A model generated the notes under the pieces. It was not told the origin of the DNA. It did no database searches and saw only the letters and a list, made by a program, of their open reading frames with translations. The translations under genes were made by a program, and so were the position numbers. DNA of 64,000 nt from Tubulanus polymorphus (taxonomy: Eukaryota > Nemertea > Palaeonemertea > Tubulaniformes > Tubulanidae), in NCBI RefSeq assembly GCF_964204645.1, contig NC_134026.1, positions 26,864,650 through 26,928,649 of the forward strand. The letters are read 5' to 3'. This document shows, piece by piece, positions 7,735 through 62,640 of the stretch; the stretch's first letter is position 1, and each line of letters begins with the position of its first letter.

Positions 7735-39003
<31,269 letters not shown>

Positions 39004-48226: not shown

Positions 48227-49104
48227 TTTTGAATTACCCTCAGCACCCTTTAGAATAAGGCTCTCCAGAAAACCGCTAGGGCGATATATTGTGTTCGCAT
48301 TTTGTGGATTGCCAACAAAAAAGATGGGATACCACTCAGACAGCCGAAACGTTGCGGTTTCGTTTTAATAAAGTATTTCATATAAAATTCGAATTGTGAG
48401 ACTTCTTCGATTAATGACGTAGTTACGATAAATGTGGATAGATGGCGACTGCAGAATGTTGAAAGCTTGTTTTGGTCGATTTTGACAGATCCAAAATGCC
48501 GGCTTTTTGAATCGTAGTTAGGCCTGCTGTACTCCTGGCTGGTCATACAAATTAGCGTCAACAACTATCAACGGGCCCAGTTTAACGTGCAGTGTCGTAT
48601 TGTTTCGCCGCTGATATAATCGCATAAATAAAAGCTTGTCGGCAGACCAGTTGGTGGGATTATTTTTTTTTGGGTTGAAAAAAAAGAAGTAGATTGCAAG
48701 AATAAAACGCAGGAGTTTCAAAAAAAGGTTTAACTCTTAAATCGATTTAATTTCTTCATTAATTCAGTTTATCTTAAAACGTTTTAGACCTCAATCCAGG
48801 ATTTGCTATACGTGTATTAAACTTAACTAAACAAATGACAAATTTTAGAATCAATCATATTCATTCTCATACAACAATTATACAAAATGCCAGGAGTGCT
48901 CGAGGAATTATAATGTAAGCTCCTCAAACACGTGGACTTTCAAAAACAACTAGTCCAACCACCAGGCGTATAAACTATAAACGAGAGTTTATACGGTTGT
49001 TCGGTGGTGTACCAGAACACCGTTTCAAGATGGCGGCTATGTAGAGGGCGCCATGGGACAATACAGTGAGAACAGGACCACCGCATACAACACGGGCCGA
49101 AAGC

Positions 49105-50283
49105 ATCCGTAGCAACACTGGTATCAGTAGTATCATCGGTCTCTGAGAGGATCGGACAGTATCACTGGTAACAGTGGTATCGGGGTAGCAGTAGTATCAC
49201 CGGTCTCCAGAAGGATCGGGCAGTATCACTGGTAACAGTGGTATCGGGGTAGCAGTAGTATCACCGGTCTCCAGAAGGATCGGGCAGTATCACTGGTATC
49301 AGTGGTATCGGGGTAGCAGTAGTATCACCGGTCTCCAGAAGGATCGGACAGTATCACTGGTAACGGTGGTATCGGGGTATCAGTAGTATCACCGGTCTTG
49401 GAGAGGATCGGGCAGTATCACTGGTAACAGTGGTATCGGGGTATCAGTAGTATCATCGGTCTCCAGAAGGATCGGACAATATCACTGGTAACAGTGGTAT
49501 CGGGGTATCAGTAGTATCACCGGTCTTGGAGAGGATCGGGCAGTATCACTGGTAACAGTGGTATCGGGGTATCAGTTGTATCACCGGTCTCTGGAAGGAT
49601 CGGGCAGTATCACTGGTAACAGTGGTATCGGGGTATCAGTAGTATCACCGGTCATGGAGAGGATCGGGCAGTATCACTGGTAACAGTGGTATCGGGGTAT
49701 CAGTAGTATCACCGGTCTCCAGAAGGATCGGACAGTATCACTGGTAACAGTGGTATCGGGGTAGCAGTAGTATCACCGGTCTCCTGAAGGATCGGACAGT
49801 ATCACTGGTAACAGTGGTATCGGGGTAGCAGTAGTATCACCGGTCTCGGAGAGGATCGGGCAGTATCACTGGTAACAGTGGTATCGGGGTAGCAGTAGTA
49901 TCACCGGTCTCCTGAAGGATCGGACAGTATCACTGGTAACAGTGGTATCGGGGTAGCAGTAGTATCACCGGTCTCGGAGAGGATCGGGCAGTATCACTGG
50001 TAACAGTGGTATCGGGGTAGCAGTAGTATCACCGGTCTCCAGAAGGATCGGGCAGTATCACTGGTAACAGTGGTATCGGGGTAGCAGTAGTATCATCGGT
50101 CTCTGAGAGGATCGGACAGTATCACTGGTATCAGTGGTATCGGGGTAGCAGTAGTATCACCGGTCTCCTGAAGGATCGGGCAGTATCACTGGTATCAGTG
50201 GTATTGGGGTAGCAGTAGTATCACCGGTCTGGGAGAGGATCGGGCAGTATCACTGGTAACAGTGGTATCGGGGTAGCAGTAGA
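49105..50283 (+). repeat. 64-bp tandem array, left arm, about 18 copies
   Basis: Exact 64-bp spacing, for example CGGTCTC at 49137, 49201 and 49265. The unit contains the dyad CACTGGTAACAGTG and the pair ACCGGT. Variants differ at few positions (CCAGAAGG, CTGAGAGG or TGGAGAGG; GTAACAG or GTATCAG), and the variants are interspersed, consistent with unequal exchange or gene conversion. 64 is not a multiple of 3, so it does not code for a repeat protein. Confidence 0.98.
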
Positions 50284-50309
50284 CTTTTTTGCGCCGGACA
50301 CGTTTGATT

Positions 50310-50358
50310 AAACCGATATTTCGTTATAAAAGATCTCGTTGTAGCGAGGTTTGACTAG
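50310..50358 (-). mobile_element. Pogo/Tigger-type terminal repeat fragment
   Basis: The minus strand reads AGTCAAACCTCGCTACAACG and then more of a typical pogo/Tigger end. I see only one end, so this is a truncated remnant just inside the left array. Confidence 0.45.
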
Positions 50359-50510
50359 TATTACAGTGGAATTTTTATCGGTGGTACATGTATTTATTTT
50401 CCAGAGTTGCAAAATTTGGTTTCATTTTTTGGTGCGCCGTATCCACTGCCTGGTAATACTCTCCGTACTAAGTTCTTTGACTTTGAATAGTACATAGCAG
50501 CTAAGGATCG

Positions 50511-50651
50511 GGGGCCAGTTGCACAGTTTGTGACTTAAGTCCAAAAGTGGTCTTAAATCTTAAGACTGGTCTCAAGTTGTTAGATTGGCTATAGAACTAA
50601 GTTGGTCTTAGACTGGTCTTAAGTCTAAGCCATAACTATGCAACTGGCCCC
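50511..50651. mobile_element. 141-bp MITE with GGGGCCAGTTGCA ends
   Basis: Begins GGGGCCAGTTGCACAGTT and ends with the inverse of GGGGCCAGTTGCATAGTT. The interior is rich in CTTAAG, GACTTAAG and TTGGTCTTA motifs in both orientations. No clear target duplication. It sits in the core of the foldback element. Confidence 0.8.
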
Positions 50652-51513
50652 TGGAAGATTTGTTGAAGGCGTATCAAATTATCTAACTTTATCGGGTAAT
50701 CTCAAACTCAAGCGGGTACAGATCAGTCGTCAGAAAAGATATTCAAAAAAATATTCAACGCAGGCTTAAACTGCAAATAACCCTCTTTAAACTCTGTAAA
50801 AATTGGAAATATAGCTTTAAGAGATACTTAGATATTTTGAAATTAATGAATGTTGAGATTTCTTTTACGCGCGGTTAAGATATGCGGTCCTTGGGGTCAC
50901 ATCGTCAGTGTTCTCAATTGTTGCGTTCAAAAATTCCAAGAAACGCCAGCAAATATCTGCATTTCGTTTCCTTAAAAATGGTGTATAAATTAATTTCGTC
51001 GAGCAAGGGACTGCAGAACTATATGATATTCAATCTAAACTTATGTTTTAAAAATGAGTGCAAATTATCGCAACAATAGGGACCTCGAGGGACCGCCACA
51101 AAATGGCGCCTAGAAACTGGAAACTTCTTTATTTAAAAAAAATTAGTTAAGTCACAAGTCACTCACTAATTAGTGTTTCTCAATTTTAAACAGCCTAATT
51201 AAGTATATTGTAAACAAACATATGCATCAATAAACCAATATCAAGATTGCAGATTAAGACTATGGAGAATAAATCATTGCTATTATGTACAATATATGAT
51301 ACAATAAAATGTAAAGTAAAATGTAAATGATACCTGAGAAATATAATCACCAATGAAGTCATACAACACAAAAATATCAAAAGCATACAACGCAGTAATG
51401 TATCAGATCATCACAGTTTTTATAACATTGAATGAACTACCATTGACCACAACTCAGCCTTAGTAGCATTGGTATTGAAAATATTTCACCAATTGACTAT
51501 CGGCTGTGTAAAT

Positions 51514-52251
51514 GAATCCGGGTCATAATACCTCCGCCCAAAATACCTCCACCCAAATATCCCACACCCAGAATCCCTCCACCCAGAATACCCTCATATG
51601 TGTCCAAAATACCTCCAGGCCCTAGATCTAATGGGTTTATGCCTGAAGGACAAAAATTTGAACCTATTAGAAATATAATTTTTTAGAATGAATATTTTGT
51701 CCCCCCCCCCCAAGTTTTAATTTACAGGCAATACTCAAATAAACCAAAGTTCTATAGTTTAAAAGTAGTTAATTGAGCAAAACAAAGTATAATGTTAATT
51801 TCAGTGATCATAGTTGCACTTAAATGGAAATGAACTGAATTCAGTGTGTAAAGCGAAATGTAGTACATTGTTTTCTTAGATTATAGGACTAATTAATATT
51901 CTATAATCTAAATATTGAATAGTTTCCAGAGAAATCTAGCATAAGATTAAAGACATGAGATAAACTAATTAATATTCCCAGCCAAAACTAATTGCAAGTG
52001 AACATTGTCATTAATTGTTATTCAATTATTATTCAGTAGGTTTATATATACCGTAATACATTATATATGATAGTTGTATAATAGTCAATATTGGTGGTAC
52101 TTTAAACATCTAAATAATATAATTATAGTATTTTTTTTAAATTCTGGGTGGAGGTATTTTGGACACATATGAGGGTATTCTGGGTGGAGGGATTCTGGGT
52201 GTGGGATTTTGGACGGAGGCATTTTGGGCGGAGGTATTATGGGCGTATCCC
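51514..52251. mobile_element. Nested foldback-like element I, 8-bp target duplication
   Basis: Direct repeat GTGTAAAT flanks it (51506-51513, 52252-52259). Inverted arms (about 51525-51625 and 52141-52251) are themselves made of a 17-20 bp motif repeated about five times (ATACCTCCACCCA-like on the left, its inverse on the right). The middle (about 500 bp) is AT-rich with a C9-10 run near 51703-51712. No coding capacity. Confidence 0.75.
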
Positions 52252-52355
52252 GTGTAAATAGAAGGTCCATCAAAATACCTATTTGTAAAATTCAACAACT
52301 TAAGTGTCATACTAAGTTGACCAGCACTGAGTAAGGCGGACGCAACTGTACACAT

Positions 52356-53232
52356 ATGGATGAAGAGTATAATTTGGTAACAGGTAAAAATCCCTCCTAG
52401 GTAAAAAAAAACCCAAAATCCCCCCAAATTTATTTCACAGCAAAAGTCAATGAAATACTGTAATATTCTTTAGTTGAAAAACGTTAATAGTTTTGCAAAA
52501 ATTTCCAATTTTCCCTGGTGTTTTTCACAATCACCTCGGATAATCTGTGTCTTTTACCGTGCAGTAAAAATCCCCTTGGTAAAAATCCCCAATTCTTCAA
52601 AGTAGGTAAAAATCCCCCTCCTTCTGAATGTAGTTTAAGTAGATACAATCTTAAGGTCAATTAATTCATATTTACCGGTATTTCATATTTATGATACACA
52701 TATCCTATTTATTATTGTGGAACATCATAAGGATATCATGAGTATACAAACTATTGCATATACTACTTGAATTCAAACATACTACAAATCAAAAATTCAT
52801 TAATACTAAATTAGTACTCAAAAGTTATCACACAGCTTAATGAAAGGGTTCTTAGCACTTGTCAAATATATTACACTAGTTTGAAACTAAAATATCTAGA
52901 ATTAAAAGTTCGTTATTGCTCAAAATTCATTGCATCGCGCAGCTCAAATATACCACAAGTTAACAAGATATTCCGGTTCGAATTTAAAGGTATTACAAAT
53001 AAAAGTGTATTATTCTTATTAATTCTAACAATTTATTGAAATCTAAGAGTTTACTTAAGAATTTATCACAACGAAAGATTTCATTGCACAGTCCAAACAT
53101 ATTTCAGTCTCATCGCAAATTAATAAAATTGGAGTATCATTTTGCTTTGAAATGGTCTTGAAAATCACCAAGTGGGGATTTTTACCTACTGTGAATATTT
53201 GGGGATTTCTACCTAGAAGTTTTTTACCATAG
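52356..53232. mobile_element. Nested foldback-like element II, 9-bp target duplication
   Basis: TGTACACAT is repeated exactly on both sides (52347-52355, 53233-53241). The left arm has several GGTAAAAATCCCC-type units (52384-52400, 52563-52620) and the right arm has their inverse (53165-53230). The long AT-rich middle is non-coding. A truncated second copy is at 54709-55016. Confidence 0.75.
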
Positions 53233-53326
53233 TGTACACATGATTGTATGCTGTTCTACTGGACTTGGAGTACTCGCGGCTATACTTATTATTATTCCAA
53301 GACTGGACGCAAGTCGTGCTTTCGAC

Positions 53327-53984
53327 GGGTCCATACCTATGTTCCTCGGGTCCTATGTTCCCCCAAGGGAGATTAAACATAAAAGGGGTTCTATATTCCC
53401 CGGATCCGATATTCCTGGAAGATTATGGAAAATGTATAAAAAGGTCCTTTGTTCCCATGGCCACATACACTCAATTTCGGCGCCGGGAATTCAGAGCATG
53501 ATAACGCGTCAGGCTGCCAATTAGTTGATGTTGAAAATCGGCACTACATGTATCTTTATCTTTATCTTTATTCTATTAAATGAAAATTAACGACATGAAT
53601 CACAATTAAAAATCTCCCGGGCAAGTTTCAAAGCCTTTTTACAGTGTGACGTAACTACTGAATAAATTACCTGATCGATCGATTAATTGTCATCTCGAAT
53701 TTCTCTCGTTAAGTTCTGGCGTTTGCAAAAAATAAAAGCACCTTGTCTGTATCAAATTTATAGTATCTAGCAAATACATGACATGATTGATGGACTATTA
53801 TTAAAAAGCATAGGTATGGACACCGGTCAACGTTTTTATTATTTGGAGAATATATGGAACCCTCGTTGTATTATTTCCTTTGGGAGAATATAGAACCCGG
53901 GGAATATAGGACCCGGGGAACATGGAACCCGGGGAATATAGGGCCCGGGGAACATAGAACCTGGGGAATCTAGGGATGACCCCC
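53327..53984. mobile_element. Nested foldback-like element III, 8-bp target duplication
   Basis: CTTTCGAC on both sides (53319-53326, 53985-53992). Ends are inverted (GGGTCCATACC against GGGGTCATCCC). Arms consist of 17-18 bp units, GGGTCCTATGTTCCCC-like on the left (53327-53450) and CCCGGGGAATATAGG-like on the right (53875-53984). A short ATCTTT repeat is near 53551-53575. The open frames here arise from the repeats and are not genes. Confidence 0.75.
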
Positions 53985-54410
53985 CTTTCGACCGTATTCA
54001 TTACTCATTACTTTTCAAATCATTACTGAAACGAAGAATATTTTAATTGATTTTTATTTCATATGGAAATATGCCGGTTACCTGAAACCGGAATTTTTCA
54101 TTGGATTAAAACAAGGGCCGGGGCTTATTTCTTCTTTGTTTTTCACCGCTTGCATCGATAGCTTACATAGTTTTGGTAGTCACATAGCCAGATCTTGGAG
54201 CGTTAAAATATGCAGGTGGTTTAATTTTACTTGAGCCCATTACAGGATCGATAATTCAAATGTAGAACATTTGCGAACAATTTGCGGAAGCGTGTAATAT
54301 TTCATTTTAAAGAAGTAAATCACATTTTGCATTTTCCTGGATACGTCCTCGTCAAGTTTTATTACTATTATATTTTCATCACTTGAATTAATTATTTTGT
54401 TTTGTAATAC

Positions 54411-54705
54411 AGTCAACCCCCGATATACCATCCACATCGGTGAAGAAAATTTTGACGGTATAGAGAGTATGACGGTATATATCGTGGGTATTTTACTATG
54501 TATTTGTTAAGAGATGTACATTGCCCACAATTTAAATTTTTCATCAAATTTCGCAAATATCTGCTCAGGGTAAAGAAACGTTCTGTTAATTCTGCTGTTC
54601 GCGGTAATCTGGGACAGTTCCCTCTACTTATAATTTTCTTGCCACTTATGGTCAAATAGTGGCTGTGCATCTGTAAAATAGACAGTTCGACGATGGTATA
54701 TAAAG
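54411..54705. mobile_element. Pogo/Tigger-like MITE, degenerate
   Basis: Left end CAGTCAACCCCCGATATACC after a TA; right end is roughly inverse (TATATACCATCG reading inward from 54705). More GGTATATA motifs occur inside near 54440-54490. The match of the ends is imperfect. Confidence 0.45.
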
Positions 54706-54708
54706 CGG

Positions 54709-55016
54709 CTAGTGGTAAAAATCCTCAGGGTTAAATTCCCCTAAAATCCAAATTCCTCAAAGTAAGTAAAAATCGCCCTCCTTCTGAATGTAGTGTAAGT
54801 AGATACAATCTTAAGGTCAATTAATTCATATTTATGATACATATATCTAATTTATTATTGTGGAACATCTTAAGGATATCATGATCATACAAACTTTGAA
54901 TTAAAACATTACTACAAATTAACACAGTTCATCGCACATTTCAAATATACTACACTAGCTTGAATCTTAAATATCTAGAATTAAAAGTTCACTATTGCTT
55001 ATAACTTCATGGCATA
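54709..55016 (+). mobile_element. Truncated copy of nested element II
   Basis: Sequence such as CTCCTTCTGAATGTAGT, ATTATTGTGGAACATC and AATATCTAGAATTAAAAG repeats that of 52615-52960 in direct orientation, with a few indels. It stops abruptly where the right 64-bp array begins. Confidence 0.75.
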
Positions 55017-58000
55017 CTGCCCGATCCTCTCCCAGACCGGTGATCCTACTGCTACCCCAATACCACTGATACCAGTGATACTGTCCGATCCTTCAGGAGA
55101 CCGGTGATACTACTGCTACCCCGATACCACTGTTACCAGTGATACTGTCCGATCCTTCAGGAGACCGGTGATACTACTGATACCCCGATACCACTGATAC
55201 CAGTGATACTGCCCGATCCTTCTGGAGACCGGTGATACTACTGCTACCCCGATACCACTGTTACCAGTGATACTGCCCGATCCTTCTGGAGACCGGTGAT
55301 ACTACTGCTACCCCGATACCACTGTTACCAGTGATACTGTCCGATCCTCTCCGAGACCGGTGATACTACTGCTACCCCGATACCACTGATACCAGTGATA
55401 CTGCCCGATCCTTCAGGAGACCGGTGATACTACTGCTACCCCGATACCACTGTTACCAGTGATACTGTCCGATCCTTCAGGAGACCGGTGATCCTACTGC
55501 TACCCCGATACCACTGATACCAGTGATACTGCCCGATCCTTCTGGAGACCGGTGATACTACTGCTACCCCAATACCACTGATACCAGTGATACTGCCCGA
55601 TCCTTCAGGAGACCGGTGATACTACTGCTACCCCGATACCACTGTTACCAGTGATACTGTCCGATCCTTCTGGAGACCGGTGATACTACTGCTACCCCGA
55701 TACCACTGTTACCAGTGATACTGTCCGATCCTCTCCGAGACCGGTGATACTACTGATACCCCGATACCACTGTTACCAGTGATACTGTCCGATCCTCTCG
55801 GAGACCGGTGATACTACTGCTACCCCGATACCACTGATACCAGTGATACTGCCCGATCCTTCTGGAGACTGGTGATACTACTGCTACCCCGATACCACTG
55901 TTACCAGTGATACTGCCCGATCCTCTCCGAGACCGGTGATACTACTGCTACCCCGATACCACTGTTACCAGTGATACTGCCCGATCCTTCTGGAGACCGG
56001 TGATACTACTGCTACCCCGATACCACTGTTACCAGTGATACTGTCCGATCCTTCAGGAGACCGGTGATACTACTGCTACCCCGATACCACTGACACCAGT
56101 GATACTGCCCGATCCTCTCCGAGACCGGTGATACTACTGCTACCCCGATACCACTGATACCAGTGATACTGCCCGATCCTTCAGGAGACCGGTGATACTA
56201 CTGCTACCCCGATACCACTGTTACCAGTGATACTGCCCGATCCTCTCGGAGACCGGTGATACTACTGCTACCCCGATACCACTGTTACCAGTGATACTGT
56301 CCGATCCTCTCCGAGACCGGTGATACTACTGCTACCCCAATACCACTGATACCAGTGATACTGCCCGATCCTTCAGGAGACCGGTGATACTACTGCTACC
56401 CCGATACCACTGTTACCAGTGATACTGTCCGATCCTTCACGAGACCGGTGATACTACTGCTACCCCGATACCACTGACACCAGTGATACTGCCCAATCCT
56501 CTCCGAGACCGGTGATACTACTGCTACCCCGATACCACTGTTACCAGTGATACTGCCCGATCCTTCAGGAGACCGGTGATACTACTGCTACCCCGATACC
56601 ACTGTTACCAGTGATACTGCCCGATCCTTCTGGAGACCGGTGATACTACTGCTACCCCAATACCACTGATACCAGTGATACTGCCCGATCCTTCAGGAGA
56701 CCGGTGATACTACTGCTACCCCGATACCACTGTTACCAGTGATACTGTCCGATCCTTCTGGAGACCGGTGATACTACTGCTACCCCGATACCACTGATAC
56801 CAGTGATACTGCCCGATCCTTTAGGAGACCGATGATACTACTGCTACCCCGATACCACTGTTACCAGTGATACTGTCCGATCCTCTCAGAGACCGATGAT
56901 ACTACTGCTACCCCGATACCACTGTTACCAGTGATACTGTCCGATCCTCTCCGAGACCGGTGATACTACTGCTACCCCGATACCACTGATACCAGTGATA
57001 CTGTCCGATCCTTCTGGAGACCGGTGATATACTGCTACCCCGATAGCACTGATACCAGTGATACTGCCCGATCCTTCTGGAGACCGGTGATACTACTGCT
57101 ACCCCGATACCACTGTTACCAGTGTTACTGCTCGATCCTTCTGGAGACCGGTGATACTACTGATACCCCGATACCACTGTTACCAGTGATACTGTCCGAT
57201 CCTCTCGGAGACCGGTGATACTACTGCTACCCCGATACCACTGATACCAGTGATACTGTCCGATCCTTCAGGAGACCGGTGATACTACTGCTACCCCGAT
57301 ACCACTGTTACCAGTGATACTGCCCGATCCTCTCCGAGACCGGTGATACTACTGCTACCCCGATACCACTGATACCAGTGATACTGCCCGATCCTTCTGG
57401 AGACCGGTGATACTACTGCTACCCCGATACCACTGATACCAGTGATACTGCCCGATCCTTCTGGAGACCGGTGATACTACTGCTACCCCGATACCACTGT
57501 TACCAGTGATACTGCCCGATCCTTCTGGAGACCGGTGATACTACTGCTACCCCGATACCACTGTTACCAGTGATACTGTCCGATCCTCTCCGAGACCGGT
57601 GATACTACTGCTACCCCGATACCACTGATACCAGTGATACTGCCCGATCCTCTCGGAGACCAGTGATACTACTGCTACCCCGATACCACTGTTACCAGTG
57701 ATACTGTCCGATCCTCTCCGAGACCGGTGATACTACTGCTACCCCGATACCACTGTTACCAGTGATACTGTCCGATCCTCTCCGAGACCGGTGATACTAC
57801 TGCTACCCCGATACCACTGTTACCAGTGATACTGTCCGATCCTCTCCGAGACCGGTGATACTACTGCTACCCCGATACCACTGTTACCAGTGATACTGTC
57901 CGATCCTCTCCGAGACCGGTGATACTAGTGATTCCACGATACCACTGATACCAGCGATACTGTCCGATCCTCTCCGAGACCGGTGATACTACTGATACCC

Positions 58001-58020
58001 CGATACCACTGATACCAGTA
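55017..58020 (-). repeat. 64-bp tandem array, right arm, about 47 copies
   Basis: Same unit as the left array but inverted, about 2.5 times as long. A few copies are defective (for instance GTGATATACTGC at 57026-57037 and a diverged unit near 57925-57955). Copies at the outer end are the most variable. Confidence 0.98.
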
Positions 58021-58169
58021 TTGCTACGGATGCTTTCGGCCGTGTTGTATGCGGTGGTAATGTCCTGTTCTCACTGTATTGTCCCATGGCGCCCTCTACA
58101 TAGCCGCCATCTTGAAACGGTGTTCTGGTACACCACTGACTAACCGTTTATACGCCGATGGTCCAACCA

Positions 58170-62284: not shown

Positions 62285-62640
62285 AAGTACAGATATAGTT
62301 GTGTGATCTGCGGTCAATCTAACATAATTTTTTTTTCAAAATCGAAGTAGTACGAAAGTTTACAAGGTAGAATTTTGTCTAAGTTTTACATATTTTTACA
62401 GTTTTTTTTTTAAAATCGAAGTGCAGATATAGCTGTCAATCTTACATATTTTTTTTTTCAAAATCGAAGTAGTCCGAAAGTTTACAAGGTAGAATTTTGT
62501 CTAAGTTTTACATATTTTTACAGTTTTTTTTTAAACGAAGTAAAGATATAGTTGTGTGATTGGTGTTCAATCTTACATAATTTTTTTTCGAAATCGAAAT
62601 AGTCTGAAAGCTTACAAGGTAGAAGATAACTTTGTCGAAT
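62285..62640. repeat. Tandem repeat, three copies of about 115-130 bp
   Basis: Each copy has AGATATAGTTGTGTGAT-like sequence, CAATCTTACAT, a T-run, AAATCGAAGTAGT, and AAAGTTTACAAGGTAGA. Copies begin near 62290, 62425 and 62545. The first overlaps the degraded exon-like copy described at 62150-62290. Confidence 0.75.

What the first reader, a model, noticed from the sequence alone, without database searches (positions are those of the whole stretch)
48962..58160. A 9.2 kb foldback (FB-like) transposon with satellite arms and a 9-bp target duplication
Seen: two inverted arms made of a 64-bp tandem unit, with unique inverted ends outside them and the exact 9-mer GTCCAACCA on both sides. Known: FB elements of Drosophila have tandem-repeat inverted arms and 9-bp duplications, and are related to Mutator-like elements. 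Inference: this is an independent FB-type element in a distant animal, and it is non-autonomous.
Basis: partly seen in the sequence, partly recalled or inferred. Interest (0 to 1): 0.88.

Follow-up and report, generated by a model that had tools for sequence, protein, structure and literature searches.

The report
Jumping gene with satellite-DNA arms
The window holds one copy of a recently active, protein-less mobile DNA element whose two mirror-image arms are built from a 64-base tandem repeat; the kind of element is known, but its target mark is 8 bases long and not the 9-base mark first proposed, and the enzyme that moves it was not found.

Summary
The foldback structure is real, with corrected borders. 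The element is 48995-58145 (9151 bp), not 48962-58160: outer end (125 bp), 64-bp array (1.16 kb), non-coding interior (4.73 kb), inverted 64-bp array (3.0 kb), outer end (126 bp). The proposed 9-bp duplication GTCCAACCA is not the target duplication; it lies in an older interspersed repeat that the element entered, and two unoccupied copies of that repeat align through the site. The real duplication is 8 bp (GTTTATAC): 9 of 9 young copies have perfect 8-bp duplications, none extends to 9. At least 14 two-ended and 5 one-ended copies were found. Two copies on different chromosomes differ at 1 base in 9151, so the family moved very recently. An exact core word of the satellite occurs 420 times in the genome, 419 of them in these 19 places. 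No coding capacity was found. Termini 5'-GG with a uniform 8-bp duplication fit the printed description of Merlin better than Drosophila FB (9 bp), but no Merlin or MULE transposase is linked to these ends, so the superfamily is open. In passing, a second foldback family with a large transposase-like frame was found in the same genome.

The parts
48987..48994 (+). left 8-bp target site duplication GTTTATAC
   Evidence: unoccupied repeats
48995..49119 (+). outer unique end, alpha type (GGTTGTTCGGTGGTGTACCAGAACACC...)
   Evidence: 113 bp of it (48996-49108) 100% identical in copies B-I
49120..50282 (+). alpha arm: 64-bp tandem array, 18.2 copies
   Evidence: inverted relation to the other arm
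50283..55013 (+). non-coding interior shared by the young copies (D lacks about 1.6 kb of it)
50687..51133 (+). stretch of another repeat family, present elsewhere as inverted pairs
   Evidence: not aligned in the older copies K, O, N
51534..52251 (+). nested MITE-like insertion with about 93-bp inverted ends, absent from older copies K, O, N
55014..58019 (-). beta arm: inverted 64-bp tandem array, 47 copies
58020..58145 (-). outer unique end, beta type (GGTTAGTCAGTGGTGTACCAGAACACC... on the minus strand)
58146..58153 (+). right 8-bp target site duplication GTTTATAC
48953..48961 (+). first GTCCAACCA: part of the pre-existing target repeat, not of the element
58161..58169 (+). second GTCCAACCA: part of the pre-existing target repeat (GTCCAAACA in both unoccupied copies)

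Best explanation
It is one copy of a non-autonomous foldback DNA transposon family. Shown: defined termini (5'-GG), inverted ends of about 125 bp, inverted 64-bp satellite arms, an exact 8-bp target duplication, dispersal to several chromosomes, very recent movement, and no recognisable coding capacity. Inferred: a DDE transposase supplied in trans binds the conserved outer end (core GTGGTGTACCAGAACACC), cuts the element out and joins it to an 8-bp staggered cut, and gap repair from a sister copy multiplies the element while arm length changes by whole 64-bp units. The most likely enzyme type is Merlin/IS1595 (about 0.45), then Mutator-like (about 0.3), then something else (about 0.25). The confidence below is for the non-autonomous foldback transposon, not for the enzyme.
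For: Young copies A-I all share the termini and have perfect 8-bp duplications, each of a different sequence (9 of 9), none extendable to 9. Of all 14 two-ended copies: 11 perfect (K and M after allowing for a small end indel, read by eye; the script scored them as not equal), N 7 of 8 bases, L and O none. Joined flanks align through the junction with unoccupied paralogues for A, G and K, shown base by base for A; for G the two flank matches overlap by exactly 8 bases. Copies A (C2) and F (C9) are both 9151 bp with 1 mismatch. Pairwise interior differences among the nine copies are 0.02-0.54%, gaps left out. Alpha parts differ from A's by multiples of 64 bp, exactly, in all eight other copies (F by none), beta parts by multiples of 64 to within 0-6 bp. 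419 of 420 exact satellite core words lie in the 19 family places (a reversed control word gave 0). No protein match in six frames. Merlin is described as having terminal 5'-GG, 24-462 bp inverted repeats and 8- or 9-bp duplications, and some Merlin copies as containing tandem repeats (PMC8101967, passages); 43 Merlin-domain hits, some in uninterrupted frames, exist in this genome.
Against: No autonomous partner found: 0 of 43 PF12762 and 0 of 56 PF10551 hits lie within 10 kb of any listed end-like site (on the lists); the nearest is a weak Merlin hit 14.7 kb outside copy K. The only transposase-like hit inside family borders is a Rehavkus-like fragment in copy N. Mutator-like elements can also leave 8 bp (8-11 bp in PMC6446971). 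Binding of the outer end by a transposase is not tested. The 64-bp unit is not similar to the outer ends beyond chance, so the arms are not shown to be extra binding sites. Copies L and O show no duplication. A strict text check for G's empty site in copy N (60 bases, up to 6 edits) found none, although BLAST aligns it at 90% over 475 columns.
Confidence: 0.9

Rival explanations
1. It is a Mutator-superfamily foldback like Drosophila FB, Tetris or Tm1, moved by a MULE or Rehavkus-like transposase.
For: Most foldbacks are said to belong to Mutator, with exceptions (PMC4079207 passages); Tetris has 8-10 bp duplications, Tm1 mostly 9. The genome has 56 MULE hits and a Rehavkus-like foldback family with its own transposase-like frame. 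A fragment of such a transposase lies inside copy N, 3.3 kb from its end.
Against: Duplications are uniformly 8 bp in 9 of 9 young copies, not 9. 0 of 56 MULE hits within 10 kb of an end-like site. The ends of the Rehavkus-like family, read at two places (ACCTACGTGAAG...), show no significant similarity to these ends. The fragment in N matches another locus on C9 at 98% over 606 bp only, with different sequence on both sides, so it looks like a separate insertion.
Confidence: 0.3
2. The two arms are an assembly join of one satellite array.
For: Arrays are difficult to assemble; arm lengths vary widely.
Against: Eight other young copies show the same plan, each between its own 8-bp duplication; unoccupied sites exist. 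Array length in any one copy could still be misassembled.
Confidence: 0.02
3. The element ends at the GTCCAACCA 9-mer and makes 9-bp duplications.
For: Exact 9-mer on both sides.
Against: Unoccupied copies of the target repeat contain the stretch between the 9-mer and the terminus and the same or a near-identical 9-mer; by eye the other copies share nothing with A outside GGTTGTTC/GGTTAGTC.
Confidence: 0.01

Closest known systems
Tetris (Drosophila virilis foldback)
   Same: Outer unique domain, tandem-repeat domain, non-coding middle, no transposase found, duplications of 8-9 bp in complete copies (PMC4079207 passages)
   Different: About 220-bp unit that shares 37 bp with the outer end (here 64 bp and no such similarity); Tetris repeats were amplified into satellite DNA, here 419 of 420 exact core words stay in the family
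Tm1 (root-knot nematode Mutator/Foldback)
   Same: Composite inverted ends, non-autonomous members, no target consensus (PMC3169594 passages)
   Different: Mostly 9-bp duplications (8-10 bp in 45 of 53), known Phantom-type transposase member
Merlin / IS1595 superfamily
   Same: 5'-GG termini, 8-bp duplication, inverted ends within 24-462 bp; some Merlin copies contain tandem repeats (PMC8101967 passages)
   Different: No transposase in or linked to the family; the one search for Merlin with foldback gave a plant review only (listing)
Galileo (P superfamily foldback)
   Same: Long internally repeated inverted ends, foldback-like (abstracts in the listing)
   Different: P-type transposase; 7-bp duplication and CA-type ends (recalled; the primary paper is not held)

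Membership tests
Foldback transposons (structural class) | Long inverted arms containing tandem repeats | tested here: met
Foldback transposons (structural class) | Multicopy, flanked by target duplications | tested here: met
   14 two-ended copies found; 9 of 9 young copies with perfect 8-bp duplications
Drosophila FB family | 9-bp duplications | tested here: not met
   8 bp in 9 of 9 young copies, none extends to 9
Mutator superfamily | 8-11 bp duplications | tested here: met
   against PMC6446971; not specific
Mutator superfamily | MULE transposase in a partner with the same ends | tested here: inconclusive
   0 of 56 hits within 10 kb of an end-like site; partner with diverged ends or absent from the assembly not excluded
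Merlin superfamily | Terminal 5'-GG and 8/9-bp duplication | tested here: met
   against the description
Merlin superfamily | DDE_Tnp_IS1595 transposase in a partner with the same ends | tested here: inconclusive
Rehavkus | PHD-finger transposase, 3' minisatellite, 9-bp duplication | tested here: not met
   no protein match in the window element, 8-bp duplication; ends unlike those of the Rehavkus-like family 2
KDZ (Kyakuja/Dileera/Zisupton) | KDZ transposase in a partner | not tested
   search machine did not answer

The most novel reading that the evidence does not exclude
A recently active foldback family of the Merlin superfamily, in which the foldback plan arose independently of Mutator and P, with a satellite that exists only as transposon arms and whose copy number changes in whole units between near-identical copies.
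Probability: 0.4. Interest if true: 0.6.

Novelty: new member of a known kind. Interest (0 to 1): 0.42.

Why it matters
It shows, with copies almost too young to have mutated, how satellite arms change length by dozens of whole units between copies whose interiors differ by 0.1%, and that such a satellite can stay locked inside its transposon. It also corrects the diagnostic: a chance 9-mer in the target would have put it in the wrong group.

Tried and rejected
Autonomous partner by shared ends: the terminal 19 bp with up to 2 mismatches (63 matches, against 25 for the reversed control), the inner 18-bp core with up to 2 (50 against 4) and a 99-bp relative end (33). Apart from the family's own copies, three inverted pairs appeared: C4:8846808/8846964 and C7:8517453/8519057, which could not be read, and C3:19113630/19116064, whose inverted repeat extends outside the motif and which looks like another element. 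Single ends with 20-34 bp of similarity, and the one-ended copies J, S and P, have no 8-bp partner in the fetched DNA; the autonomous element could lie beyond it or be absent from the assembly.

Transposase relict in copy N as the family's own gene: thought unlikely, since it matches a C9 locus over 606 bp only. Transposase remains in the extra interior parts of older copies K and O: no match but one weak, irrelevant hit (PROPPIN, E 0.061) in six read-through frames each. Unit derived from the outer end, as in Tetris: no similarity beyond shuffles (485 of 500 for the alpha end and 331 of 500 for the beta end reach the score). Arms homogenised within a copy: no signal (0.933 within a copy, 0.932 between copies; only 64-bp monomers counted, others left out). 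Plasmid collection as a source of relatives: no match (an ill-suited collection, run once). KDZ transposase search did not complete; hAT and P were not searched.
Full report
What is there. The window lies at C2:26864650-26928649 of a 267.8-Mb genome in 77 contigs; the species was not identified. Inverted 64-bp arrays lie at 49120-50282 and 55014-58019, with unique inverted ends outside them. Between the arms lie 4.73 kb without a frame over 110 aa and without any Pfam match up to E 0.1 in six frames read through stops.

Borders. Nineteen places carry the outer end together with at least part of the 64-bp unit; I call them A (the window) to S. One search scored 40 of 61 candidates, so 19 is a lower bound. 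Fourteen have two ends (A-I, K-O); for five (J, P, Q, R, S) one end was found, and P has only 46 bp of the unit. Lining up the ends (by eye) shows that similarity between copies stops at GGTTGTTCGG (alpha end) or GGTTAGTCAG (beta end). In A this places the element at 48995-58145, 9151 bp. Directly outside is GTTTATAC on both sides. Copies A-I all have a perfect 8-bp duplication, each of a different sequence, and none extends to 9 (9 of 9). Of the five older two-ended copies, K and M have 8 bp once a small indel at one end is allowed for (by eye), N has 7 of 8, and L and O have none.

The 9-mer. GTCCAACCA at 48953 and 58161 is real but belongs to the target. When A's flanks are joined with one GTTTATAC, the result aligns through the junction with two other copies of an interspersed repeat, on C2 (L045) and C4 (L043), at 76.5% and 75.6%. 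Both carry GTCCAACCACC and, after 2 (L045) or about 46 (L043) bases that A lacks, AGGCGTATAAACTATAAACGAGAGTTTATACG uninterrupted at the insertion point; both have GTCCAAACA where A has the second 9-mer. Joined flanks of G and K also align through the junction with paralogues; for G the two flank matches overlap by exactly 8 bases, though a stricter text check for G found nothing.

Age and dynamics. A on C2 and F on C9 are both 9151 bp and differ at one base over the whole element, satellites included. The interiors of the nine young copies differ by 0.02-0.54%, while alpha arrays range from 0.27 to 3.8 kb and beta arrays from 1.7 to 3.3 kb. Alpha parts differ from A's by exact multiples of 64 bp in all eight other copies (F by none); beta parts do so to within 0-6 bp. 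E and H differ by 0.11% in the interior, by 2048 bp (32 units) in the alpha part and by 124 bp in the beta part. D lost about 1.6 kb of interior; the two sides share GTTTAA at the join, as expected of interrupted gap repair (inference). In all nine young copies the interior has the same orientation relative to the two end types, so there is no sign of flipping by arm recombination. The exact core word AGTATCACTGGTAACAGTGGTATC occurs 420 times in the genome, the reversed control 0 times, and 419 times in the stretches fetched for the 19 places; diverged units are not counted by this.

History. K, N and O keep the same interior at 81-94% identity per aligned stretch and lack the 0.7-kb MITE-like insertion at 51534-52251. 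The non-coding family is therefore old and was re-amplified recently. Older copies are larger, in N and O because of nested elements. N holds a 16.5-kb Polinton-like element with 375-bp inverted ends at 99.7% and the 6-bp duplication AACCAG. O holds a retroelement with an envelope-like frame (Pfam Baculo_F, 2.4e-13; its other frames are my reading). L has a different interior and arms that share 2.5 kb at 97%, with beta ends on both sides.

What moves it. The family must be served in trans. MULE (PF10551, 56 hits) and Merlin (PF12762, 43 hits) domains both exist in the genome. A comparison of their places with all listed end-like sites gives no pair within 10 kb: the nearest Merlin hit, a weak one, is 14.7 kb outside K, the nearest MULE hit 237 kb away. 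The published description of Merlin, with conserved terminal 5'-GG, 24-462 bp inverted repeats and 8- or 9-bp duplications (PMC8101967, passages), fits this family in each of these three points. MULEs leave 8-11 bp (PMC6446971, passages), so they are not excluded. I rank Merlin about 0.45, Mutator-like about 0.3, other or unknown about 0.25.

A second foldback family. A transposase-like frame in N (3.3 kb inside its end) led to C2:24.19-24.215 Mb, C4:26.31-26.34 Mb, C1:4.83-4.85 Mb, C5:16.39-16.40 Mb, and further places at C2:25.31-25.33 Mb and C10:6.68-6.69 Mb. These six have tandem units in minus orientation on the left and plus orientation on the right (a capped list). At the C2:24.2 and C4 places the hit lies in a 1758-aa open frame. 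The C2 frame has a PHD finger, a ubiquitin hydrolase domain and a Ulp1 protease domain by Pfam and a DDE-like YYDATG region by my reading. A minisatellite of about 94-99 bp follows the frame. The PHD finger and 3' minisatellite match the printed description of Rehavkus (PMC6446971, passages). Its ends (ACCTACGTGAAG..., read at two places) are unlike those of the window family, so it is not shown to be the partner; its own duplication was not read.

Verdict. A genuine, recently active, non-autonomous foldback family. The kind is known: Drosophila FB, Tetris, Tm1, Galileo (sea-urchin foldbacks are cited in PMC4079207; the name TU elements is recalled). New here are the family, the corrected 8-bp duplication, the confinement of the satellite, and the open possibility of a Merlin-type foldback. 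One full-text search for Merlin together with foldback gave one paper, a plant review seen in the listing only.

Noticed in passing
L059:1178-6451 (+), array from 6469 on into L060; G000 C2:24189341-24214965, C4:26311011-26337750, C1:4831951-4846480, C5:16390284-16402432, C2:25314257-25326569, C10:6683513-6688493: Second foldback family: inverted tandem arms at six places; two of them (C2:24.2, C4) have a 1758-aa open frame, in the C2 copy with PHD, ubiquitin-hydrolase and Ulp1 domains (Pfam), a DDE-like region (my reading) and a 3' minisatellite of about 94-99 bp (Rehavkus-like). Ends ACCTACGTGAAG... read at two places.
   Followed up: partly
copy N, C1:18824621-18841123 (L035-L036): Polinton-like element nested in a family copy: 375-bp inverted ends 99.7% alike, 6-bp duplication AACCAG; frames with an A32-type ATPase match over the Pfam cut-off, and integrase, chromodomain and capsid matches below it.
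   Followed up: partly
copy O, about C4:11493.1-11501.6 kb (L038): Nested retroelement: one frame matches baculovirus F envelope protein (Pfam Baculo_F, 2.4e-13); integrase and reverse-transcriptase-like frames by my reading only.
   Followed up: no
copy L, C2:8888634-8908906 (L031-L033): Family copy with a wholly different interior of about 13 kb, arms sharing 2.5 kb at 97%, beta ends on both sides, no 8-bp duplication; contains a reverse transcriptase frame and a receptor-like frame (7tm_1, below the Pfam cut-off).
   Followed up: partly
L050:185-249, L044:1044-1077, L054:104-132, L053:3690-3715, L051:3867-3886, L055:1898-1921: Isolated 20-34-bp pieces identical or nearly so to the outer end in unrelated surroundings, with no partner end or 8-bp repeat in the fetched DNA; origin unexplained.
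   Followed up: partly
G000 C7:8517453-8519074 and C4:8846808-8846981: Inverted pairs of the core CTGGTGTACCAGAACACC (second C7 copy with one more change) 1.6 kb and 0.17 kb apart: possible short relatives or a small autonomous partner; could not be read.
   Followed up: no
window 16588-16950: 102 perfect TA repeats followed directly by 16 copies of AGAGGGAGAG.
   Followed up: no
window 62313-62555: Two tandem copies of a 122-bp unit.
   Followed up: no
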